The position numbers and the translations under genes were made by a program. Positions 12,001 to 59,144 of a stretch of 64,000 nucleotides of DNA are shown here, piece after piece. Each line of letters begins with the position of its first letter. Positions within the stretch are counted from its first letter, which is position 1. The notes under the pieces are model-generated. The model was not told the DNA's origin and did no database searches. It saw nothing but the letters and a program-made list of their open reading frames with translations. Origin of the DNA: Heliocidaris tuberculata (taxonomy: Eukaryota; Echinodermata; Echinoidea; Camarodonta; Echinometridae); NCBI GenBank assembly GCA_025618425.1, contig CM046832.1:70849707-70913706 (forward strand), in the 5' to 3' direction.

Positions 12001-12136
12001 GCTTGTGACAGTCAAATACATTCGACTTGATCGATACCATCAGAGGTTCCCATCGGCTCTCAACGTCACATCACTGCTTCAACCCTCTAACAACCTACGT
12101 ATGTCACTTCAGTCACCTCCTAGCACGTCTACCTGA
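1..12136 (+). CDS. LEMD3: LEMD3/MAN1-like inner nuclear membrane protein, 3' part (5' end outside window)
   Basis: Exons read: 1-46 (less sure), 289-317, 1060-1129, 4287-4369, 4740-4834, 5468-5619, 6365-6466, 6814-6916, 7620-7788, 8279-8318, 9693-9780, 10334-10439, 10886-10964 and 11997-12136, stop TGA at 12134. All junctions are GT-AG and phases add up to one 433-residue frame. Residues 17-150 resemble the lumenal part. Residues about 147-171 form a membrane segment ([20 protein letters not shown]). Residues about 180-283 match the Man1-Src1 C-terminal winged-helix domain ([24 protein letters not shown]). Residues about 315-410 match the C-terminal RRM/UHM fold ([46 protein letters not shown]). 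Family knowledge: MAN1 sits in the inner nuclear membrane and its RRM part binds receptor SMADs, damping TGF-beta/BMP signals. LEMD2 lacks this RRM, which favours LEMD3. The LEM domain and first membrane segment would lie upstream of the window. Confidence 0.93.
1626..2217. mobile_element. TTAA-bounded palindromic transposon, copy 1
   Basis: A roughly 590-bp element with inverted ends: AAGGGAAATCCAACCTT at the left and its near reverse complement (AAGGTTGGATTGCCCTTT) at the right, each bounded by TTAA. The subterminal 130 bases are also inverted copies of each other. A second copy lies at 55120-55693 and a decayed piece at 62990-63090. TTAA borders recall piggyBac-type insertion, but no transposase is present. 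It lies in a LEMD3 intron. Confidence 0.8.
2340..3835 (-). mobile_element. 5'-truncated non-LTR retrotransposon (LINE) with reverse transcriptase C-terminus
   Basis: The minus strand holds a 296-residue frame (2941-3831). It carries the end of a Jockey/CR1-like reverse transcriptase: [30 protein letters not shown], then a thumb-like region ([15 protein letters not shown]). The catalytic palm is missing, so the copy was truncated at its 5' end on insertion, as is usual for LINEs. Downstream on the same strand is an A-rich 3' UTR with simple repeats. It finishes in a short ATTGA/AATTC-type tail near 2340, which fits the 3' end of CR1/L2-like elements. It lies antisense in the LEMD3 intron between the exons at 1060 and 4287. 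Confidence 0.85.
2640..2850. repeat. CA and GA/A-rich microsatellites
   Basis: A (CA)n run near 2643-2668 is followed by GA-rich sequence and a long A run (about 2830-2846). The small frames across it are low-complexity artefacts. It falls within the 3' part of the LINE. Confidence 0.85.
7178..7466. repeat. Two-copy tandem duplication, 143-bp unit
   Basis: Two adjacent, nearly identical units begin with GGGTAGGTTTTAGGGTTGCC at 7182 and 7325. They lie in the LEMD3 intron between the exons at 6814 and 7620 and carry no frame. Confidence 0.9.
8527..9338. mobile_element. hAT-like nonautonomous element
   Basis: Inverted ends TAGGCTTGGG (8527) and CCCAAGCCTA (ending 9338). They are flanked by 8-bp direct repeats CTTCTAAC (8519-8526) and CTTCTAAG (9339-9346), 7 of 8 matching. 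An 8-bp target duplication and short ends fit the hAT superfamily. No transposase frame is visible. It lies in a LEMD3 intron. Confidence 0.75.
9431..9560. mobile_element. 130-bp palindromic MITE
   Basis: Inverted ends AGGGGCCTGTAACATAAAGA and TCTTTGTGTTACAGGCCCCT, with inner arms built on ATCAATCTTAC/GATTGTAAGAT. It can fold into a long hairpin. It lies 132 bases upstream of the LEMD3 exon at 9693. Confidence 0.75.
11071..11205. repeat. Three-copy tandem repeat, 51-bp unit
   Basis: TATCTCATGGTTTG recurs at 11071, 11122 and 11173, each copy followed by a variable GTAAGTACCCGATGACCGTGC-like part that degrades in the third. It lies in the last LEMD3 intron. Confidence 0.85.
11396..11538. mobile_element. 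Small palindromic MITE
   Basis: Imperfect inverted arms of about 40 bases: AATATTGAATGAC...GGGACACAAGGGTATAT and its mirrored form ending in ...GGCCATTCAATATT. No coding content. Confidence 0.65.
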
Positions 12137-16989: not shown

Positions 16990-17324
16990 TATAAACCTAG
17001 ACAGGAGTACTGAAATAATAGAATGATTCTGTCTTTCTGTTTCGGTCATACGAGCTCCATAATGAAGCTGTTATATGCCAAATGAGCTGTAAGGAGAAAG
17101 TTTTGCTAAATCCAATCATATTCACGAGCATAGCTTTATTGGTGAATAATCTCATTGAAAGCATTTTTTTTTTCCCACTGCAATCCCCTGTGAGGTGATT
17201 GTATTTTCAGTAGATTCAGTAATATAATAAATGTTATGATCTTCATTAAAGTTCTGAATAAAAAAGCACCAAAGACCTACATGATTGTCGGCAGTGTATT
17301 AAAAATGCTGCTTCGGGAAGCCCA

Positions 17325-17551
17325 GGGGTGGTATTCTGAGATTTATTTTATCATGATTTTAGTGAAAAGATTTTAATTATAACAAATTTTAAATTGCAAC
17401 ATTTCATTGGTGTTTGCGCAGATGAATTCCGCGTACGTAGCCACTTTTGCACAGTCATTAACCAATGATGCGCCATAAGCGTACATTTTGTTATGACAAT
17501 TACAATTATTTCACTAAAATCAAGATAACATAAATCTCAGAATACCACCCC
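17325..17551. mobile_element. Palindromic MITE upstream of UQCC5
   Basis: A 227-bp element with arms of roughly 45 bases: GGGGTGGTATTCTGAGATTT at the left, its reverse complement at the right, and TGATTTTAGTGAAA inverted further in. It ends about 96 bases before the UQCC5 start codon, so it sits in or next to the promoter/5' UTR. Confidence 0.8.
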
Positions 17552-17647
17552 AGAGCGATTGAATATTTCTGTGTTCAAGAACAGCCGGCCTTGATCGGAG
17601 ACTAATTCAAAGATTGCGTAATCATCGCAAAGCAGCAGTAAGGAAGG

Positions 17648-18709
17648 ATGTTTTACAGCAAAACTCTAACAAGAATCCTGAATAAGTGGCCGGGAAAGAA
17701 AACATTTGGTGTATATAGGTTCTTACCAGTATTTTTCATCACAGGGGCTGGTTTGGAATGGATCATGATCAATGCTAGAATAGCACCAGGACGAGAAACG
17801 TTTTGTAAGTTAGCATCAGTCACTCTATCAGTATCACTATATCAGTCCCATCCGTGTTACTTCGTGCGTGCTACGTGTTTAGATTTGCTGACAAATGCTG
17901 GAGTGAAGTGTCATAGGCAGCATAGCCCGGTGTCATAGCTGAGGCTTAGCTGTCCACGAGCCACATCCCTCTTTATATTCATTCATGATCATGATGATAG
18001 TTACTTAATTATAACTTATGAAGATTTGTATTAGGAATAGATATTCCTAGCTATTTCTGAAATTTTATCTTCTCCACAAAAACGGAATTCGATTTCGAGG
18101 CCATCTCGTTAAACGAAGCCATGACTGAGTTGACCATGAATGGCATGATGACTCATGATCAGTGTGTTCTGCCTCACTGTGCATTAAGTCTATTAAGATG
18201 AAAAGACGTCTTCATAAGTTGCATTCAATGAAGCTCTGCTGAGAAAAATTAAAAGAACAACTATAGCTTCTGATTTATCTAACCTCAGGTCCATACTCCT
18301 CCCTGTTCAATTCAAGTAAAAGATCCCTACCCCCCCCCCCCCAAAAAAAAAAGATGAAAAAAACAAAACAAACTAAACAAGAACAAAACAAAACAGACGA
18401 TATTTAATGAATATTTATTAAAACAGTCATGATAGTAAGTGTTCGCAATAACATGCCATGTCACTGCAGTAGCATTGTTTGATTTAGTTTCAAGAAAAAT
18501 ACCAAGTAAATTTCAATATCCATTGAGCATGTTGAGTCTTGTCTATCTTATGTAAAGTTGTAGTCACTATATTAATACTGGTATTGATTTGATAACTTAA
18601 ATTTTTATCTTTCACTTTGCTTTTCTTCTTAATTTCAGATGATGTGTACAGGAGAAAAGAATCGGAACGTCGCTATGCAAAACAACTTGAGGAAGAATAT
18701 AAAGAGTAA
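17648..18709 (+). CDS. UQCC5: UQCC5 (SMIM4), mitochondrial complex III assembly microprotein
   Basis: Exons 17648-17804 and 18639-18709 join in phase 1 (TTT T|AT) to give 75 residues. Donor GTAAGT and acceptor TTTCAG are strong. Start ATG has A at -3. The protein begins MFYSKTLTRILNKWPGKK, has a single membrane segment (FGVYRFLPVFFITGAGLEWI, about residues 20-39) and then the family motif ETFY-D-DVYRRKESERRY and an acidic/basic tail. This matches human SMIM4/UQCC5 (about 70 residues) along its whole length. One extra Asp sits before VYRRK. Family knowledge: UQCC5 is an inner-membrane protein required for early cytochrome b maturation and complex III assembly, acting with UQCC6. UQCC6 follows 193 bases later on the same strand with no polyadenylation signal or convincing acceptor between, so both are probably read from one mRNA. 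Confidence 0.95.
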
Positions 18710-18902
18710 AAATACAATCTTGATTCATTGTGCATGAATGTTCATTGAATGAAAACAAACCTTGTTCAAGAAGAATACAACTTAAGCCTCATATAGGAGA
18801 GTGGAAAGAAACTTTTGGAAGAAAACTGAATTAGTAAGGAGTTTAGAACCTACAGCAAGAAGCTTTTGTCATCACTGAACTGTTTTGAAGGAGTCTTCCA
18901 AT
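18710..18902 (+). promoter_or_regulatory. UQCC5-UQCC6 intercistronic region
   Basis: 193 bases between the UQCC5 stop and the UQCC6 start. It contains three close ATGs (18743, 18747 and 18757) that open only tiny frames, all stopping before the UQCC6 start. I see no AATAAA and no acceptor with a pyrimidine tract. How ribosomes reach the second frame (reinitiation, leaky scanning or internal entry) cannot be read from the sequence. Confidence 0.6.
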
Positions 18903-20054
18903 ATGCCGGCTGGTGTAGACTGGTACCCATATATCAAGTTCATGACTGCCAGTATGTTGTCCATGTTTCTTGGGGCACAGATTGTACACTCATACTATAA
19001 GCCAGAGCTAGTAAGTCATGTTTTTATATGTGTTTGATTTCGTTTGTTTGATTTTGCTACAGATCACCTTATCCATTTAAAGTGTTTAGCTGAAATTTTA
19101 CTCTGAACAAAACTACATGGCCCACAATCAGCGAAGATAGCGGGGAGGGGGAAATGGGGGATGCATCCCCCCTACAACGTTAAAGGGAATCCTTTTATCT
19201 CAGCCTATTGTTCAAATTCGCCGTAACACACGTTCGATTCACTTTAATGTTGAATTTCTGTTGTGACAGAATATATATATATATATATATATAGTTGGGA
19301 GAATCATCCCCCCCAGTAATGAGGACCCGACTACACCAATGCCCACAATGTACACATTCTTATATTTTTTCCACACCTATGTGGACTATCATAAACACAC
19401 TGATCTCTACAATGAAAATTTGACTTTGAGATGTCACAGATATATTCCTACTTTTTATGATATTTATTTATATGTACAAATTTATTTCAGTCATTTTGTT
19501 TTTATTACATGAATTCAAATTCCCTTAACAAACCCTTATGTAGGGAAATGCAAACCATTGATCTGATAATTATTGTCATATTCAATGTAACAATTTTTAT
19601 ATGACATTTGTTATGACTTTGCAATGGAAGCTCAGTATAAAGTCCTTGGGACCATAAAAATTACCTTGTTATAGCAGGAATCTCGTTATATCGGGTTAAA
19701 AAACAACAGGATATAAAGAACCCAGACCAGAATATTACCTTGTTATATCAGGAATATTGTTATATCAGACCTCTTTATACTGAGTTTCCACTGTATTTCT
19801 GAAGTTAAAACCTTTTTCGTTTTACTATTTTTGAACACCATTGAAAATCATTAGTACCGGTACATGAATGTTGTGTTGTAAGGTGATAGTGAATAAAGTT
19901 AACTGTTTTTTTCTTTCTGTCTTTCAATCTATTTAAATAAACGCAGGAGATACCCGAGATCCCTCCAGCCTTAGGTGAGCTTGGAAGGATGAGGGATGAA
20001 GCCAAGAGAAGACGAGAAGAAGAAAGGAAGAAGAATTCAGAAAATGCTTCATGA
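18903..20054 (+). CDS. UQCC6: UQCC6 (brawnin, C12orf73), mitochondrial complex III assembly microprotein
   Basis: Exons 18903-19010 and 19947-20054 join in phase 0 to give 71 residues, the length of the human protein. Start context has A at -3. It begins MPAGVDWYPYIKFM, has one membrane segment (MTASMLSMFLGAQIVHSYY, about residues 14-32), then the family signature KPEL-E-IPEIPP-xxGEL and a charged tail rich in Arg, Lys and Glu. Family knowledge: brawnin is an inner mitochondrial membrane microprotein needed for complex III assembly, working with UQCC5. The first coding exon appears to be the 3' continuation of UQCC5 exon 2. In Drosophila the orthologues (sloth1/sloth2) are also on one transcript, while the human genes lie on different chromosomes. 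Confidence 0.95.
19622..19793. mobile_element. Mariner-like MITE, copy 2
   Basis: Same family as 16828-16989: right end GAGTTTCCACTG followed by TA, left end decayed (CAATGGAAGCTC). It lies in the UQCC6 intron, about 150 bases before its second exon. Confidence 0.7.
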
Positions 20055-20454
20055 CACCAAGAAATGTTTATAGCATAATATGAACACTTCATAGAAAGTA
20101 TATTGTATTATGAAGAGATGATTAACTACAGACTGTCACTTAATAATCTGTTGTGAAGATTAATAATAATAGGCCTATACTGGTAATATTGGGTGCTTGT
20201 TTAGCACTTGTGTCTGTCATACATGATGCTGGAGGCTATCCATATTATTACCCTTTCTTTAGCCTGGCTGCTATTACTTCTTGAAATCTGCCCCTTTTCA
20301 TAATTGACAGTACTGTATAAAGTTCATGTCAAAAAGGCATTGTATTATTTTGGGAAGCACTCCAAAATATACATGTACAGTCCCTAAATCTCATTTTGCA
20401 GTGATTATGCTTACTCATGAATATACATGTATTGGCCAATAATTTATGTTGGTC

Positions 20455-21808
20455 TACGCCCGATAGTCCGCGGGGCCGATAGACCGCGGGGCCGATAGAC
20501 CGCGGGGCCGAAAGACCGCGGGGCCGATGGACCGCGGTGTCTGAAATGCAACGCATTTTCACATCATGTCTTAAATGCATAATGACTCAAATAATTCATG
20601 TATCTTAATCCCGGGGGGGGGGGGATCTTCCATTGAAATCCGTACAGCATCCGCGAACCTGAAAACGAGGAAAAGGGGTAGTTTTTCAGGGTCGGGCCTA
20701 TTTAATTTGTCTATGGGTCGGGTGCGAATCCGCGCGGATCCGCGTTTAGGGTGTCAAAAACGACAAATATATAATAATAATAATAAATAATAATACTACT
20801 TGGTTCTTTTATAGCGCATTACACATAACAACACTGCATGTCCCTATGCGCTTTATAAAGTAAGAACGAAATAACTTAGAAATAAGAAGGTGCATACAAT
20901 GTAATGTTGGACACTGAGTTCATACTCTAAGTATTAAACAGATATCTTTTAAGGGATATTTTGAACTTATCTAAGTTGCTTTCATATCTCATGATACCCT
21001 TTTCATATAAATGGGTATCAAAATCACACTTCGGACCAAATGCAGGGAAAAGGGTATGAAATTTAACACGTTTCGTTTCGTTGTTTTTTTAATCAAGAAA
21101 AACGAAAGCATAACGCAATCCCTTATCTTTTCTTTTCAATAATTTTCAAAACAAAATGAGCTGTGTCCAAAGCAAATCAATATTTGGAACTTATTCAATT
21201 CATAATATTAATCAGTCTTCAAAATCAATCGTCAGTTATGCCATTTCCTCGTTTCTCTTCTGATTATCATTCAGTTTAACGCTGCTTAGTTTGAATTCTT
21301 TATATGAATTAGTGATAGTTGTGTATTTGTTATGAGATGGGTTTGATGAAGGCAATAAGTACTGTTTATATGAAAAAGTTGATTTTCAAAGATGTTATTT
21401 GATAAAACTTTGAGTTTCAATGAAAAGTTTCAAATTGCACGTCCTGTTAATTAGCGTTAGTTTCTTTTATTTCAAATAAAAACACAGACTTGAAGTCACT
21501 TATTGCATAATCCATTGAACATCAAAAAGTTTGAGCACATCCAGGAGGGGGTGACGATCCACCTCCCATTTCTCTTTAAATTTTTTTTTTTTTGGAAGTT
21601 TTGCTGTTAGTGCTTTCGATTGCAAGAGGTAAATAGTGATTTGAGCGAATGTGCGGAATTACTGGTGACTGGCGTGTACACTGAGACGCCGCGGTCTATC
21701 GGCCCGCGGTCTATCGGCCCGCGGTCTATAGGCCCCGCGGTATATATCGGTCCCGCGGTCTATAGGCCCCGCGGTCTATCGGCCCCGCGGACTATTGGGA
21801 TTCCCCCT
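20455..21808. mobile_element. Foldback-like element with terminal arrays of a 16-bp CCGCGG unit
   Basis: Left end (20460-20540): five tandem units of GGGCCGATAGACCGCG type. Right end (21688-21800): about seven units of the inverted form, CCGCGGTCTATCGGCC. The 1.1-kb interior is AT-rich and holds no recognisable gene. It does contain an ATAATAATA run and a short segment (TTTTATAGCGCATTACA...ATGCGCTTTATAAAG, about 20810-20860). Tandem short repeats making up long inverted ends is the design of foldback elements such as sea-urchin TU and Drosophila FB. Confidence 0.7.
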
Positions 21809-33200: not shown

Positions 33201-36200
33201 TACATGAAAATTTTCCGATGGATGAAAATTAAAATCCTTTTGCTATTATGTTTCATGATATTACAGATGACCCTTTAACCCCTTTAGAACGTGAGAATAA
33301 GGTATTTAATGCTGGAAATTTGATTGTCTTTAAAAATTCTATTTTGTGTACAATCTCAATGTGTCCCGTCTGTCACGTTTTTATTGTCCCGTCTGTCACG
33401 CTCACTATTTGGCATTTTCCTCCAAAAGTAAGATGAAATTTCAAATGTATACTAGCAGGTTTCAAAAAGGTACCAACAACTGATAACATGAATACACATA
33501 TTTTGTTTCAAGATTTTCCAGTGAGGAGAGCTTAGTCGAAAAGTATCGAAGCAGAAATGGCTTGGTAAATTCATGTCCCGTCTGTCACGCTGAACTTGAA
33601 GCCCCACCCACAATTTGTGGGCGGGGCTTGAAAAAAAAATTTCCCCCCATTTTGTTGACCAAACCCTATAGATCACATCTCTGCATCAAATTAAGCATCA
33701 CTTTTAAATGAAATATGAAATATCAAGTAAAAACATAAAAATGTGAGGGTTGGATGTCCCGTCTGTCACGCTGGAATTACCCTTATTACACGCGACAGTC
33801 CATATGTTTCAGGTTGCAATTCGCGATACTGGAATTCTGCGTTGAGGTTGAGTGATATCTGTTGATTCTTGAAATCAAAGTGATTGATTAAATCCGGTTA
33901 TACTGATAAATTATAACATGCAAATATATATCATGCACATGCAATCCTGCAGTTATGTTTTAGAGTCCAAGTTTAACTCTATAAACTATTAACTATTTAC
34001 AAAATGCGAAAGTCTTTCTCTGTTGTTCGCTTTCAGTTATTTACAAATTCAAGCGATCTGGCGGTTTAACAACTCGTCCGCTTCTTGTTGTTCTGGTTGA
34101 TGACGTAGTTGCGCTTTCATCTGATGCTGGTTGCTTTGTAGCTTCTGCGCTGTCATCTAGCTCGAAGTCATCCTGCGTTGGTAGTGGAATAGACTCGGCT
34201 TGTTGTTGACGTGGGACTGGCCTGAGGTGACGTCTGTTTCTGCGACGTATCTCGCCTGTTTCTGTCTCGACCTGGTATGATCTGTTTCGATTTTGGACAG
34301 ACTTGATGATACCACGTTTCGACCAGGTGTTGGTTTTCATGTCTTGGAGTATGACATGATCTCCAGGCTTCAGCTTTGACAAGTCTTGAGCATGTTTGTC
34401 AAATCGCTCTTTTTGCTTCACCTTATGCTCCTCCTTTCTTCCCCTCACTGAGCGAGTATCGATCCGTTGGTTGTCGAGTAAATTGTCAAGCATGGGGAGG
34501 TTCGATCTAAGTCGACGATTGTACAGGAGTTCTGCGGGAGACTTTCCGCATGCTAGTGGTGAACTTCGATAGACTTGTAGAGCCATGTGGATATCTTGTC
34601 CACTGTGCTGTGACTTCTTTATGAGATTTTTGACAATCTTCACAGCATTCTCTGCGAGGCCATTGGATTGTGGATAATGTGGACTCGACGTCGTGTGGTG
34701 AAAATCCCATTCTTTTGCAAAGCTCTGGAACTCTTGGCTTGCAAATTGAGGACCATTATCCGACATCAGTTCACATGGTGTTCCATGACGAGCAAATACT
34801 GCTTTCATGTGGTTGATCACGGCCTTGCTACTAGTTGAAGTCATAGTACATACTTCAATGAACTGGGAATAGTAGTCGACGATGACCATGTACTCTCTAT
34901 TGTTCAGTGTGAACAAATCAACAGCAACTTTCTCCCACGGGCGGTTCGGCACAGCATGAGGATGTAGACTTTCAGCCTGCTGCTTTGGTTTGTACATCAG
35001 GCATGAAGTACAACTTTGGACCATTTCAGCTATGTCTGTGTTAATTCTGGGCCAATAGATGACTTCTCTGGCACGTTTCTTACACTTCTCAATGCCTAAG
35101 TGTCCTTCATGGATTTTGTTTAGCATGAACCGTCTCATAGTAGTGGGAACAACTATTTTGCTGCCTTTGAAGATGATGCCATCTGCTTCAGAGAGTTCAC
35201 CTCTGATGTTCCAGTATTCTCTGACTCTAACTGGACATTGCTGCTTTGTTTCTGGCCACCCATCTCTGATGATGCCTAGCAGCTCTTGCAGTTGATCATC
35301 TTTCTTTGTCTCTTCGACAATCTGATTTCGTTTGTTTGATGTAACTGGCATGCTCTTGACAATAGCATCTACATAGACTCTGATATCTTCCTCTGTTTCA
35401 GCATTCAACTCGGCATTTGGATCTACTGCTCTGGACAATGTATCAGCAGTATACATGTACTTTCCAGGCGTGTACGAGACTTTGAGATCATATCTCTGTA
35501 CCCTGATGAGTAACCTTTGAATGCGTAGGGGACAGTCACCCAGTGACTTGACAAACAGTGGAATAAGTGGCTTGTGATCAGTCTCCACTTCTATTTGTTG
35601 TCCATAGATGTATTGATGGAATCTTTCACATGCATATGTGATTGCCAGTAGTTCCTTTTCGATCTGTGCATATCTAGTCTCTGCATCAGTCATTGATCTA
35701 GATGCATATGCGATCGGAACCCAATTTTGATCATGTTGCTGTAGTAGCACTGCACCAATACCATTCTTTGATGCGTCTGCTGACAGCTTGGTTGGTTTCT
35801 TGCAGTCATAGAAATGTAGGACTGGCTCTTGTATCAGAGCTTGTTTCAACTGATTCCATGCATCTTCTTGTGCATGATCCCATGTCCACACATTCTTTTT
35901 GTCTAGTAGACTTCTCAGAGGTGCTGACTTGTTGGACAGATCTGGGATAAACTTCCCTTGGTAATTGATCATACCCAAGAACCTTTGGACATCTTGCCGA
36001 CATTTCGGTCTTTCCATGTTCAAGATAGCAGACACTTTCTTTGGATCAGGTTGAACTCCTTGATCACTGATCAAGTCACCAATGAATGTGAGTTTCTTGA
36101 CACTGAACTCGCATTTGTCTTTGTTCAACTTGAGATTCATTTTTCTTGCAATGCTGAGAACTTCTCTCAATCTGTCATCATGCTCCTGTTGGGTAGTTCC

Positions 36201-39200
36201 CCATACAATCACATCATCCATCATTGTGTTGACTCCCGGAATGTGTGCAAACATCTGGTGCACTATCTTGTGATAGACTTCCGGAGCACTACAAATACCA
36301 AAAGGTAGTCTCAAGAACTTGTACCTTCCGTATGGAGTGATAAACGTACAAAGTTTGGAGCTTTCATCATCTAGTTGGATCTGCCAAAAACCACTAGATG
36401 CATCTAACTTGCTGAAGTACTTGGCTCCTGCAAAGTGTGCAGTTATTTCAGCTCTAGATGGCAATTGATAGTGTTCTCTTTTGACTGCTCGGTTCAGGTC
36501 TCTTGGATCTAAACAGATTCTGAGCTGACCATTCTTTTTCATCACCACCACGAGAGAAGAAACCCAATCAGTTGGTTCATCTACTGGTGTGATCACGTCC
36601 ATTCGTTCCATCTTATCTAACTCGGCTTTGAGTTTACTTTGAAGTGGAAATGGAACTTTGCGACATGCATGTTGAACAGGTTGTGCATTCTCTTTCAATG
36701 TGATGTGGTGTTTACCTGGAAGACATCCTAGACCTACAAACACATCTTGATAGTCTTGCACTACACTTTTGCCTGTTCCCTGTTCAGTTTGTTTTTCAAC
36801 ATGATACACTCGTTTCACCAGACACAAGTCTTCACTTGTCCGTAATCCTAACAAAGGCTGACGATTTCCAGGAATGACTAGACACGGCACACTGTGTTTG
36901 ATTCCTTTGTACTCAACTTGTACAAAACAACGACCTTTGACTGGGATAGCTGTTTCATAGTAGCCTGTCAACATCACTTTGGCTTTTTGCAGCTTTGGTT
37001 TTGGTTTCAATTTGTGAAAGACTGTCTCAGGAAGAAGATTTGCCTGGGCACCAGTATCAATCTTGAATTCAACTGGTTGGTCATTGACTAGAAGATTGAC
37101 TTTCCATTCTTCCGTGGATTCTTTCGATTCGACAGAGCAAATCATGAAACCTTCTGAATCTACCTCCAAGTGCTGCAGTTCATTGACCTTGGCTACTGGG
37201 GTTCTACAACATTTAGCAAAATGGTTTTGCTTACCGCATTTCTTGCATGTTTTACCTTGTGCGGGACATGTGTCTTTGCTATGTCGATTTCCGCACCTAC
37301 TACATGCTTGACTGTTAGTACGACCTTGAGGTTTCGACTGTTTATACTTTGAACCAGATTTCTTCTTAGTCTTGCTGAAAGAATCTACCGGAATTGAGGC
37401 GTTTTCCCCTGCGGAACTCAACGCTTGTGCCTGCGTTCGAGTTTGTTCAGCCGCACGACATACTTGCAACGTTTTATCCAATGTGAGATCATCTTGCCTC
37501 AACAAACGTTCTCTTAGACCATCGTCTAAAATACCACAGATAATTCTGTCCCGGATAAGACTCTCTTTCAACATGGAAAACTCACACGACTGAGCACGAC
37601 TCCGCAATTCTGTTGCGTACTGATCAACACTCTCATTCACTAACTGAGATCTTGTGAAAAATCTATGTCTCTCATACGTCAAATTACGTTTCGGCATGCA
37701 ATATTCCTCATATTTGTCCAACACTTTCTCAAGCTTCATGCTCTCACCCTCAGCAAATACAAACGTATTATATAATTCCAAGGCAGCATCGCCAATGACG
37801 TGTAGAAGCATTGATGTTTGTGACTTTTCGTCTTTTTCAGACATTCCTGAGGCAACATTGTATAGAGTGAATTTCTGTTTGAACCTTTTCCAGTTCTCGG
37901 AAATATTTCCCTTTAAGTCGAGTGGAGGAGGTTGACTGAGATTTGCCATTTTGTTTCTTTTTGTTTCTTAGCCTAGTGTACTGACTCACATGAACAGAGT
38001 AACAATTAGCTTTTTCTTTTTGTATCTTTACAACAATTACTTTAGCTCAATTATTAAACTTTCACTGAGTTATTTTGTATGTTCATGTCCCATATATGTC
38101 ACGCTTACTGCCCGTTATACTGGAAATGGCCCGGCACAGAAGAGCTATGCACTCCAATCCATACAACGACAGAGCTAACTATTATGGACATAACTACATT
38201 CACTGGATACACACTTAGACTCTAAGCCCTCTCATCATCTCTCACATCACAAAAAAGAATTGGATTGAACTGGCCTGATTTCAATGAATCCTCCATAGAG
38301 CTGGGTTGCTTGCTCAGCAAAACACTTGCTGCTGTATCCTGACACCATATTATAACACCATATTATATTCTTATAGAAGACCAGTTAGAGAGCTTGATTG
38401 AACTTATAAGATGGCATAGCTTTATTAAGGTACTGTCAGGCAGACATCTTTGTAGTCAAGTATCCATGTACATGTATCATACAAGTACTCATTGTTTCAT
38501 AACTGACCTGTCATGAGTCATGGGTTACAGGTCATTCTATATTTAGTTATACATGCTAGTCTGTATTTGCAGACTCTGTTAACTAGCTATCACTACGCAT
38601 GCACATGTAGTAATTACAAACTTGCTTATTCAGAGAGGTACCATATAATAAATGTAAGGGAGGGAAAACATAAAGAGATCTTGTTTCCTCTCACATCATG
38701 TTAATTTTTGTATCAAATATTTTAGATTGCTATACTGACTGGAAATATTTAAATTATTCCTTGACAGTATAATCACTGAGTAATTATGATTAGACCAAGA
38801 ACATTTTTTTTCAAGGGAAAAGGAAAAGGAGGATGAAAAAAAGGGATAAGATAAAAAGACAAAGGAAAGATAGAAGAGCAATACTGTGATAAAATGTAAG
38901 GAGAAAAGAAGTAAAAAACAAATGTACCTCGAACTGGTTTGGATTTAACTGCATCAATTTCTCCTTGGAGACACCTCGCTTTCATCTGTGAAATGGAAGA
39001 CAGCTGTTAAAAGAGATAAGGACAATATGCAATATCATTTAAAGAATATTAATACTTTTGACCACCACCAACATAGACAAATTTGGTTAACTAAAAAGAA
39101 ATTTTGTAAAATGTAAAAATAAAACGGGCATATATCTGTCTAGACTCTATAATTAAAACAGCTAACAATTTAGAGATAAAGTTGAGTTCTGGTCATGAGA

Positions 39201-55783: not shown

Positions 55784-58148
55784 CTAAAGGTCATATAAAA
55801 ACTCATAAGCATCTTCACCAAGCAGTTTGATTTTCTTACATGCCTCTAGCATGGCAGATAGTGTGGCCTTTTTCCCTTGACTACATTTCCACTTGTACAA
55901 CATATCAAAGATCTGACTCTGGGTGTTGTATCTGTTGTTTTCTTTACACTGGTAGATGACAGCTTTGCTCATGCCAAGTTTGAGAGCAAGCATTTCCCAG
56001 TGCTCTCCAAGTTCTTGGGCTAGATCCAGAAGGTCTGGATCCTTCAGAACCTTGTTTGGGTTTTTAGGTTGACGACCTCTCTCTGCAGCACCCAAGGGTA
56101 AGAGCCCAACACAACTCTTCACATCAAGATGCTCCGCATCACGCATGTTAACATCATTTGGCATGCTGATAGAGTCAATACTCTCTGCAAAGGAAACATA
56201 TTGGAGGGATCATTTTAGTCATATAATTATGTAACAAGGCAAAGTGTTGTCTCACCTGCATCTCACTACAGCAATGAGAATGTGAACTTTGGTCTAGCAG
56301 CTTTATTATACTAAGCAATAATGATGATGTTACAAACATTTTATCCCTGGAAAATGAGTCAATGCCGTTGGTGCATCTGTCAATACTTTATTTCTTAAAC
56401 TTTACTTTTACTCCAGTGAGAAAAATTGGTGGTACTACATCAAAGAAGCAAAATGCTATTATGTGTTCACTGGCTTTCAATGAAGTTTACTGACCTTTTG
56501 ACCTTTGACCTAGGTCAGATTTGACCTATTTTTCTGAACTTGATCTGTGCCTTCATGGGATGTAACTGTGGTATGAATTTGGTAATTCTACCTCTATTCC
56601 ATAGAAAGTTATTGTGATTACAGTGCTTTTGGTAGAAAGTTCATTGACCTTTTGACCTTTGTCCTTCCTTAGATTCAACTCATTTTTGAACTTGACCTGT
56701 GCCTTTAAGAGATGTACCTGTGGTATGAATTTGTTGATTCCACCTCAAATCCATAGAAAGTTATTGTGATTACAGTGCTTTTTGTAAAAAAAACAAAAAC
56801 CAAGGACCTTTTGACTTTTGACCTGGGTCAGATTGGACTCATTTTTAAAATTGACCAGCACCTTTAAGAGACATACCTGTGGTATGAATTTGGTGATTCT
56901 ACCTAAAATCCATAGAAAGTTATTATAATTACAGTGCTTTTTGTAGAAAGTTCATTGACCTTTCGAGCTTTGACCTTAGTTGGGTTCAACTCATTTTCAA
57001 ACTTGATCTGTGCCTTTAAGGGATGTACCTCTGGTACAGTGCTTTTTGCAGAAAGTTCATAGACCTTCTGACCTTTAACCTTGGTCAGATTCGACTCATT
57101 ATCAAACTTGACCTGCACCTTTAAGAGATGTACATGTACCTGTGTATGAATTTGGTGATTCTACCTTAATTCCATAGAAAGATATTGTGATTACAGTGAT
57201 TTTTTTGTAGAAAGTTCATTGACCTTTCGACCTTGGTCAGGTTCAACTCATTTTCGAACTTGACCTGCACCTTTAAGAGATGTACCGGTGGTACAATTTG
57301 GTGATTCTACCTCCAATATTGTCATTACAGCATGATTGTTGACGACGCCGCCGATGACGCCAATGCCTAAGCTTACGCCGGAAATAGTGACGCATATAGT
57401 CTCACACAAAAAAAAAAAAAAAAATCATGTTTAATGCCACTGCATTAGTCCTGACTTTATAGGCTGTATGTAATTCATGAATGTAAACATTCTGCCAATG
57501 TCCTTTACTTTCCCTGATTTTACCAACTTGCTAATTCAGAGAGAAAGAGAGAGAGAGTAGGCATACAGCAAATCTGCAGTTCTGACAATACACATCCCTA
57601 AGTAATGCAATTCTAATCATTTACTGCTATACTCGATTTATAAAAATACTTTTCTTTTGCTTCTTTTTTTTGTAGATTATGTTAAGTTTATTCATCATAG
57701 AAATACATACAATGCAATTTCTTCTCCAATCTGTTGTGATTGCAAAGTGAAAAGTAATGAAGTTCTGAGAGGCAATTCCAAAGGGCAAAGAATTTTCAAA
57801 AAAATCACCTTGGTTTTCAGGCTTCTCTTCCTCTAATTCCTGTTGAATCTGAAGTGATACCCAATCTTCATGTTTTTTTATTGTGTCATAGAGATGCGTT
57901 GATCCTTCTATTTTTGTAAGGCTACTCTGGAGAGAGATATAAGCGCCATTCCCTCTTCTTGGCAAGATGTCCAAAAGGGCAGACACTTTTTCTCTTCTTG
58001 TCGACTTGCTCTTGATTTTCTCAACATCATTTCTGGAGATGGCTTCATCACCCAACAGATATGGTAAGATATCATCACTATCGAGGTCATTCAAAAGGTC
58101 AGGCGCAACCTTATCCAGAACCCTGCGGTTAAAATCAGTCATAGACAT
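55784..58148 (-). CDS. CRADD/RAIDD-like adaptor: CARD plus death domain
   Basis: Two minus-strand coding exons, 57809-58148 and 55784-56184, join in phase 1 (CAAG|AG) to give 246 residues. Start ATG at 58148 follows two possible acceptors (TTGCAG) 10-20 bases upstream. Residues about 5-95 form a CARD-like helical bundle (VAPDLLNDLDSDDILPYLLG, REKVSALLDILPRRG). Residues about 155-240 form a death domain (LLDLAQELGEHWEMLALKLG, VIYQCKENNRYNTQSQIFDM, LYKWKCSQGKKATLSAMLEA). This order and the LDILP-RG and GxxWExLALxLG motifs match CRADD/RAIDD, which links PIDD1 to caspase-2 in the PIDDosome. The human protein is shorter (199 residues); the linker here is longer. Echinoderms have many death-fold adaptors, so strict orthology is unproven. 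Confidence 0.87.
56480..57320. repeat. Six-unit imperfect tandem repeat in the CRADD-like intron
   Basis: Units of about 105-165 bases each contain AGTTCATTGACCTTTTGACC, a GTCAGATT(T/C)(G/A)ACTCATTTT-like part, CCTTTAAGAGATGTACCTGT, and ATAGAAAGTTATTGTGATTA or close variants. Unit heads lie near 56484, 56638, 56796, 56946, 57052 and 57208. The short minus-strand frames over it are repeat artefacts. Confidence 0.85.
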
Positions 58149-59144
58149 TGTGCCTATTTGTACCTGCAAGAATCTGCAATAAAAAGGGAGAAGTTATTCT
58201 CATTATTTTGGAATGCATCATTTCCACTAAATTTGAATAACAGAGTTCTCAGGTTAATTAAGGTTGAGGGGATAATGTACCAGAAATGATTAAATTGTTC
58301 TCTATAGACAGTCATAACAACTTCTTCCTCATCTGCTATTTTCAGAGCTAGTGCATAGTAAGAGCCAAGTACAACAAAGAATCTTTGATTACTGAAACAA
58401 TTATTAGAATAGAGCTAGGTCCAAGTCAAGGTAACAAGCTACTGCATCATGACAGAGTTTAATTGATTGTCACAATTGTATTCTGCCTTTTTTAGTTTTA
58501 GTATTAGAATTAATCTACGACATTGACATTATTTAAACTAGTGGTAAAATTTTAAAAAATCAGGAGAGTGCAGTAGTCTAGTACATAATGAGTATAACTT
58601 CATCATGTGAGAGCCAAGGCCAGGGAATAGGGATTACACATAGCTTTACTATACTTTGTGTGTACATTCTTGTACGGTCATACACCTCAACACTTTTGAC
58701 TGTGCGTCTTCAGCATGCACGCAGTGCTGAAGAATGCACGCTTGTAGCAGTCTTGTCTAACATATGGTGGATCTGAAAATTGCATGAGTGACTGTAGGTC
58801 GATGACATTACGGGACACTTCCGGGTCTACGAGCACAGCGAAGGCTTATTCGGGGTGTAGTTCGGACAACATTGAACCTACCGGTAACCATTAAAATTAA
58901 TATTTCACATTTTGTTATTTTATATTTTTTAATTCTAGGGTAAAAAATAGGGTATTAATATTCTAAAGCTATGGTGAAGAGGAGAAGAGAGAAACTGGCT
59001 CACAGTAAAGGTGATTTTCAGGAGGTTCTTAAGACTCTAAAATTGCTGCCATATTGCAGAGCGAGATTAAAAAGCAAGGCTCTATGAAGAGTAGCGTCAG
59101 CTCTTTTTTTTTTTTTTTACTCTTCAAAGTGCCTTCCAGGCTAC

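What the first reader, a model, noticed from the sequence alone, without database searches (positions are those of the whole stretch)
17648..20054. UQCC5 and UQCC6 form an apparent bicistronic gene
Seen: a 75-residue UQCC5/SMIM4 and a 71-residue UQCC6/brawnin lie head to tail on the plus strand, 193 bases apart. No poly(A) signal or convincing acceptor separates them, so UQCC5 exon 2 and UQCC6 exon 1 look like one exon. Known: both are microproteins of complex III assembly that act together. The Drosophila orthologues sloth1/sloth2 share one transcript, while the human genes are on separate chromosomes. Inference: the paired arrangement is ancient among animals and was split in the vertebrate line, or arose more than once.
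Basis: partly seen in the sequence, partly recalled or inferred. Interest (0 to 1): 0.9.

Follow-up and report, generated by a model that had tools for sequence, protein, structure and literature searches.

The report
Paired UQCC5-UQCC6 gene in sea-urchin-like genome
Two tiny mitochondrial helper-protein genes sit head to tail, 193 bases apart, in what looks like a sea urchin chromosome; this repeats a shared-transcript arrangement already published for flies, sea squirts, lampreys and choanoflagellates, and fits the idea that jawed vertebrates later split an old pair.

Summary
UQCC5/SMIM4 (75 aa, PF15114) and UQCC6/brawnin (71 aa, PF14990) lie head to tail on the plus strand, each with one coding intron, 193 nt from stop to start, in different frames. 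PF15114 has one match in the 897-Mb genome; the PF14990 search did not complete. Gene order matches Drosophila sloth1-sloth2. No RNA data were available, so one spanning transcript is inferred.
This is one more member, probably an echinoid (inferred).
What I add: (1) the AUG-laden RNA argues against the simple leaky scanning proposed for fly and favours termination-reinitiation; (2) the UQCC5 intron looks conserved; (3) neighbours include DAG1, LEMD3-like and CFA20-domain genes; (4) mammalian SMIM4 and C12orf73 each sit among STAB, NT5DC and GLT8D paralogues, so the split may be loss of one cistron from each copy after genome duplication. Giving (4) no support, NT5DC2/3-like and GLT8D-like genes are on other contigs here. 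An acceptor-like site 12 nt before the UQCC6 start was overlooked.

The parts
17648..17804 (+). UQCC5/SMIM4 coding exon 1 (residues MFYSK...RETF, ends in phase 1)
   Evidence: PF15114 E 2.5e-30 for the spliced protein; the one PF15114 match in the genome
17805..18638 (+). UQCC5 intron (GTAAGT...TTTCAG)
   Evidence: 2 of the 10 homologues aligned, the unnamed P0022 and P0025, run on into non-homologous residues (Cys-Lys) at the same point, as expected if they read into an intron there
18639..18709 (+). UQCC5 coding exon 2 with stop (YDVYRRK...EYKE*)
18710..18902 (+). 193-nt intercistronic spacer: three AUGs at 18734, 18738 and 18749 (ORFs of 4, 4 and 15 codons, all with T at -3), then 151 nt without AUG; no AATAAA/ATTAAA; no CpG; acceptor-like AG before 18891
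   Evidence: RNA fold not more stable than shuffles
18903..19010 (+). UQCC6/brawnin coding exon 1 (MPAGVDW...KPEL, ends in phase 0)
   Evidence: PF14990 E 5.9e-21 for the spliced protein
19011..19946 (+). UQCC6 intron (GTAAGT...ACGCAG); holds AATAAA at 19892 and 19936
19947..20054 (+). UQCC6 coding exon 2 with stop (EIPEIPP...SENAS*)

Best explanation
This is the echinoderm (probably sea urchin) version of the ancestral animal UQCC5-UQCC6 gene, equivalent to Drosophila sloth1-sloth2. One promoter upstream of 17648 most likely drives one mRNA made of UQCC5 exon 1, a shared middle exon (UQCC5 end + spacer + UQCC6 start) and UQCC6 exon 2. Ribosomes translate UQCC5; a fraction of the 40S subunits stay on after its stop, pass the three weak-context AUGs that lie 24-39 nt downstream before they are competent again, and reinitiate at the UQCC6 AUG after 193 nt. 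Both small inner-membrane proteins are then made from one message and act together in early complex III (cytochrome b) assembly. Shown here: both genes, splice signals, order, frame offset, spacer content. Published in other species: co-transcription and a complex III role in fly; mutual dependence and a complex III role in human cells. Inferred: single transcript, promoter place, reinitiation and the phylum.
For: Family assignments; exon structure and no AATAAA/ATTAAA in the spacer; same order and offset frames as fly sloth1-sloth2, where RT-PCR and a cDNA show one transcript (PMC9681215, passages). Four of the nine AUGs between the two starts have a purine at -3 and the one at +110 also has G at +4, so a ribosome that leaked past AUG1 would probably start again before UQCC6; the three spacer AUGs all have T at -3. 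A spacer of this make-up ends in 151 or more AUG-free nt in 2.1% of 2000 shuffles. The spacer has no CpG, while the 200 bp from 17400, just upstream of UQCC5, hold 9. Human SMIM4 and C12ORF73 each fall when the other is depleted, and C12ORF73 forms a complex with UQCC1, UQCC2 and SMIM4 (PMC8719881, passages).
Against: The acceptor-like site at 18891 could give UQCC6 a separate 5' end. The AUG-free tract shuffled by itself is AUG-free in 23% of shuffles, so the spacer signal is weak. The CpG signal is weak too: 8.6% of 200-bp windows have 9 or more, two 200-bp windows just downstream of the pair (from 20400 and 20600) hold 17 and 14, and promoters of the sea squirt Ciona differ much less from background in CpG than those of mammals (PMC3333190, abstract). 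A 75-codon first ORF is long for efficient reinitiation (recalled). The spacer RNA has no unusual fold (z +1.26) and the window no Rfam match at gathering threshold. The fly authors favour leaky scanning over a 5-nt spacer.
Confidence: 0.68

Rival explanations
1. Two adjacent genes with separate mRNAs: UQCC6 has its own promoter in the UQCC5 intron or exon 2, and UQCC5 is polyadenylated at a non-canonical site or at the AATAAA sites in the UQCC6 intron.
For: AATAAA at 19892 and 19936 lie inside the UQCC6 intron; Bosch et al. [quoted passage not shown]
Against: Only 193 nt separate the ORFs, with no AATAAA/ATTAAA and no CpG; the same close order occurs in fly, where a single transcript is shown.
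Confidence: 0.17
2. One primary transcript resolved by alternative splicing into two mRNAs: a leader exon upstream of the UQCC5 start splices to the acceptor-like site at 18891, giving a short monocistronic UQCC6 message.
For: TTTTGAAG|GAG at 18891 lies 12 nt before the UQCC6 ATG and scores above UQCC6's own acceptor in a crude score (6.3 against 5.4).
Against: Its score is far below the UQCC5 acceptor (13.4), and at least eleven other AG sites in 17805-20054 scored 7.8 or more; a donor upstream of 17648 would be needed and was not sought.
Confidence: 0.1
3. Operon resolved by spliced-leader trans-splicing at 18891, as in tunicates.
For: Position of the acceptor-like site just upstream of the second start; 19-27% of genes in two tunicates are in such operons (PMC4122922, passages).
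Against: That 2014 review says such operons were reported, apart from tunicates, only in nematodes and flatworms, with Hydra possible; I know of no echinoderm spliced leader (recalled). The phylum of the window is itself inferred.
Confidence: 0.03
4. Chance or lineage-specific adjacency with no shared expression.
For: None found.
Against: Functional partners, linked in the same way in fly, sea squirt, lamprey and choanoflagellate; 193-nt gap against about 5.5 kb to the gene upstream.
Confidence: 0.02

Closest known systems
Drosophila sloth1-sloth2 (CG32736-CG42308), Bosch et al. 2022, PMC9681215
   Same: UQCC5 orthologue first, UQCC6 orthologue second, same transcript direction, different frames, short spacer, proteins of 60-80 aa with one hydrophobic stretch (here the best 19-residue hydropathy is only 1.48 and 1.28)
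   Different: Spacer 193 nt with three AUGs instead of 5 nt (GCAAA); the leaky scanning proposed for fly does not fit the AUG load here; transcript not shown here
Lamprey, sea squirt and choanoflagellate SMIM4-C12orf73 pairs in the same paper (text passages seen; its supplementary file not seen)
   Same: Linked, described as similar bicistronic architecture
   Different: Spacers and introns of those loci were not available to me; no echinoderm is named in the passages and sections read
Human SMIM4 (chromosome 3) and C12orf73/brawnin (chromosome 12)
   Same: Orthologous proteins; same complex III assembly step and mutual dependence
   Different: Two genes on different chromosomes

Membership tests
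UQCC5/SMIM4 (PF15114) | Profile match above curated cut-off over the full domain | tested here: met
   104.6 bits against 27, profile 2-66 of 67
UQCC6/brawnin (PF14990) | Profile match above curated cut-off over the full domain | tested here: met
   74.3 bits against 27, profile 1-44 of 46
sloth1-sloth2 type bicistronic gene | UQCC5 orthologue upstream of UQCC6 orthologue, same strand, adjacent | tested here: met
sloth1-sloth2 type bicistronic gene | Separate, offset reading frames (not a fusion protein) | tested here: met
   ATG-to-ATG distance 421 nt, 421 mod 3 = 1, stop codon between
sloth1-sloth2 type bicistronic gene | No promoter or transcript end between the ORFs | tested here: inconclusive
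   No AATAAA/ATTAAA and no CpG in the spacer; acceptor-like site at 18891
sloth1-sloth2 type bicistronic gene | One mRNA carries both ORFs | not testable with these tools
   No RNA data held
sloth1-sloth2 type bicistronic gene | Both ORFs translated from that mRNA | not testable with these tools
   No ribosome profiling or proteomics held
UQCC5 and UQCC6 as paralogues (claim of Bosch et al.) | Detectable common ancestry of the two proteins | tested here: inconclusive
   hhalign probability 0.2%, E 0.35, between an 11- and a 9-sequence profile; BLASTP E 0.23 over 5 residues. No support, but the profiles are shallow (Neff about 2)

The most novel reading that the evidence does not exclude
The jawed-vertebrate split is the reciprocal loss of one cistron from each ohnologous copy of a bicistronic gene after early vertebrate genome duplication: the 3p21 copy (STAB1, NT5DC2, GLT8D1) kept SMIM4 and the 12q23 copy (STAB2, NT5DC3, GLT8D2) kept C12orf73, each turning monocistronic, while lamprey still has a linked pair; before that, the pair relied on reinitiation across an AUG-clearing spacer rather than leaky scanning.
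Probability: 0.5. Interest if true: 0.5.

Novelty: new member of a known kind. Interest (0 to 1): 0.33.

Why it matters
An echinoderm-grade pair supports a single old origin of the shared gene rather than repeated pairing. If one message makes both proteins, it is a natural case of co-expression of two mutually dependent assembly factors with no sign of a structured internal entry site, and the different spacers in fly (5 nt) and here (193 nt) allow a test of how one protein pair is co-translated by different routes. The paralogon reading would explain, with named genes, how a bicistronic gene becomes two unlinked genes. Gene callers that pick one ORF per transcript will tend to miss one of the two (inference; Bosch et al. 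note that both sea squirt ORFs are unannotated).

Tried and rejected
Paralogy of UQCC5 and UQCC6: no support from profile or pairwise comparison. Structured spacer: no unusual fold, no Rfam match in the window at gathering threshold. Solved structures: none for UQCC5 at E up to 10; the 8 UQCC6 matches are weak (best E 0.22) and unrelated by name. CpG as promoter evidence: only weak. TATA-like pattern: of 19 matches in L001 (window about 17100-20450), 16 are in a TA repeat inside the UQCC6 intron and 3 are on the minus strand. Paralogon flanks in this genome: NT5DC2/3-like exons on C19, NT5C2-like on C16, two further PF05761 matches on C6; GLT8D-like on C13; 17 fasciclin-domain matches on C1 (29.8 and 54-55 Mb), C3, C8, C9 and C16, not sorted into stabilin or other. 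tblastn of the window and 80 kb on each side with recalled NT5DC, HSP90B1 and TDG pieces: best E 0.97, none for HSP90B1. Literature: I saw no echinoderm pair and no duplication reading in the listings (12 of 6,584 shown; 2 papers); one search found no paper. Those are listings, not full readings; supplementary files could not be read, and subscription journals are mostly missing.

Full report
OBSERVATION. The window lies at 70.85-70.91 Mb of contig C1 in a genome of 897 Mb. The splice sites were read directly. UQCC5 is 17648-17804 joined to 18639-18709, 75 aa; UQCC6 is 18903-19010 joined to 19947-20054, 71 aa; the gap from stop to start is 193 nt. Both pass the curated Pfam cut-offs by a wide margin: PF15114 104.6 bits, PF14990 74.3 bits, against 27 each. 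The UQCC5 protein search gave 25 proteins, all PF15114, led by lamprey, with amphioxus fifth. UQCC6 alone found no candidate; a two-row profile with a recalled human sequence found 290 (120 listed), so that search leans on the recalled row. UQCC6 is 45-52% identical to eight vertebrate homologues that I chose from the 120 listed.

COPY NUMBER AND ORGANISM. A genome-wide search with PF15114 gave one match, this locus. The PF14990 search did not complete in ten tries, so UQCC6 copy number is open. A 351-nt DNA probe over the spacer and its edges matched only here. I saw the lengths of C1, C2, C13 and C18-C21 (31.7-76.0 Mb) and of eleven contigs from C22 to C69 (10.6-14.7 kb). That suggests 21 chromosomes, a usual echinoid number (recalled). 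The phylum is therefore inferred, not proven; I did not test mitochondrial code or markers.

GENE STRUCTURE. UQCC5 has a phase-1 intron after ...RETF. Two of the ten homologues aligned, the unnamed P0022 and P0025, follow the UQCC5 sequence up to that residue and then run into Cys-Lys, as TGTAAG would give on reading into the same intron. This suggests a conserved intron. The UQCC6 intron is phase 0 after ...KPEL. A spanning transcript would have three coding exons, the middle one shared.

TRANSLATION. In the spliced RNA nine AUGs lie between the two starts. Six are within UQCC5: the one at +110 has G at -3 and G at +4, +117 (in frame, an internal Met of UQCC5) and +160 have A at -3, +193 has G at -3, +124 and +157 have T. 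The three spacer AUGs (18734, 18738, 18749) all have T at -3 and open ORFs of 4, 4 and 15 codons; none of the nine overlaps the UQCC6 start. Simple leaky scanning, the model proposed for fly, would need a ribosome to ignore these. Termination-reinitiation fits better: the spacer AUGs come 24-39 nt after the stop, early by the usual distance rule (general knowledge), and the last 151 nt hold none. The statistics are weak: 2.1% of 2000 shuffles of the whole spacer end in so long an AUG-free stretch, but 23% of shuffles of that stretch alone are AUG-free. No special fold was seen (z +1.26; 180 of 200 shuffles fold at least as well).

SEPARATE TRANSCRIPTS? The spacer has no AATAAA or ATTAAA and no CpG. 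Within 17200-19350 the most CpG-dense 200 bp start at 17400, just upstream of UQCC5, but 8.6% of 200-bp windows are as dense, and windows from 20400 and 20600, downstream of the pair, are denser still (17 and 14). One paper's abstract says that CpG contrasts between promoters and background are much smaller in the sea squirt Ciona than in mammals (PMC3333190, abstract), so this is weak evidence. Without RNA these keep the rivals alive.

NEIGHBOURS. Upstream on the same strand are dystroglycan DAG1 (PF05454 E 4.5e-59, L003:1181-3733, about 34 kb before UQCC5) and a LEM-domain gene (PF03020 E 4.3e-14, L002) whose later exons in the window match MSC weakly (E 3.7e-4 and 0.088, below cut-off) and run to a stop at 12134-12136. 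I call it LEMD3-like from recalled features of LEMD3; Pfam found nothing in its two last short exons. Downstream are an unidentified minus-strand gene near 29.6-30.8 kb (only a sub-threshold CENP-K match, E 0.0011; none for its other piece), a CFA20-domain gene (E 2.3e-7, L013, about 83 kb away), which I take as CFAP20DC/C3orf67, and a three-zinc-finger gene (L017, about 115 kb away) that looks like KLF15 (recalled). Human DAG1 (3p21.31), CFAP20DC (3p14.2) and KLF15 (3q21) are on chromosome 3 with SMIM4, and LEMD3 is on 12q like C12orf73 (positions recalled; a paper search for these names together found nothing). The neighbourhood therefore fits SMIM4's human surroundings, but this rests on a few genes and no statistical test.

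THE VERTEBRATE SPLIT. A cattle gene list prints STAB2, NT5DC3, HSP90B1, C5H12orf73, TDG, GLT8D2 in a row (PMC8888742, passage). A list for human chromosome 3, 52.54-52.90 Mb, in alphabetical order, includes STAB1, NT5DC2, SMIM4, PBRM1, GNL3 and GLT8D1 (PMC5545733, passages); another for 3p21.1 has STAB1, NT5DC2, PBRM1, GNL3, GLT8D1 without SMIM4 (PMC4101866, passages). Three paralogous pairs thus surround the two genes, which points to an ohnologous block: the pair was duplicated and each copy lost a different cistron. Bosch et al. report a bicistronic pair in lamprey and unlinked genes in jawed vertebrates, which fits; the passages and sections I read do not mention this mechanism. Test in this genome: NT5DC2/3-like exons lie on C19 and a GLT8D-like gene on C13, not near the pair on C1; fasciclin (stabilin-type) domains occur on five contigs, C1 among them but at least 15 Mb away. 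So the vertebrate flanks are not an ancestral neighbourhood that survives here; they joined later in the chordate line or were scattered here. That does not refute the within-vertebrate reading but gives it no support from this genome.

WHAT IS KNOWN. Bosch et al. 2022 (PMC9681215; passages, Discussion and the bioinformatics section; supplements not seen) describe the fly bicistronic gene, its 5-nt spacer, RT-PCR and cDNA proof, single-gene lethality and stoichiometry, and state a similar bicistronic architecture in choanoflagellate, sea squirt and lamprey. The human-mitoribosome interactome paper (eLife 2021, PMC8719881; passages) shows mutual dependence and a shared early complex III assembly intermediate in human cells. 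The paralogy that Bosch et al. propose was not supported by profile comparison here, though the profiles are shallow.

VERDICT. A real, well-formed pair and a new member of a published kind. The arrangement and its main evolutionary reading are already in print; the reinitiation-type spacer and the reciprocal-loss hypothesis are modest, testable additions.

Noticed in passing
window 18903-20054 (UQCC6 protein residues 17-66): UQCC6 shows a sub-threshold match to the mitochondrial ribosomal protein family MRP-S33 (E 1.2e-4, 22.6 bits against a cut-off of 25). It may be composition of the charged tail; curious because SMIM4 was found with the mitoribosome.
   Followed up: no
window 34041-37967 (-) and L012:3597-9245 (+): Long uninterrupted LTR-retrotransposon polyproteins: a Gypsy-type ORF of 1308 aa and one of 1883 aa that looks Pao/BEL-like by eye.
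   Followed up: no
window 20463-20535 (approximate): Short tandem units of the form GATAGACCGCGGGGCC just downstream of the pair.
   Followed up: no
window 55787-56209 (-) and 57630-58193 (-): Death-domain (E 2.9e-14) and CARD (E 4e-14) exons close together on the minus strand.
   Followed up: no
G000 C19 4.05-4.10 and 4.23-4.26 Mb; C1 29.80 and 29.88 Mb: NT5DC2/3-like exons and fasciclin-domain exons each occur as two near-equal copies about 77-177 kb apart: recent tandem duplicates or unpurged haplotypes.
   Followed up: no
window 19892 and 19936: Two AATAAA inside the UQCC6 intron; use of either would leave a message for UQCC5 and a truncated UQCC6.
   Followed up: partly
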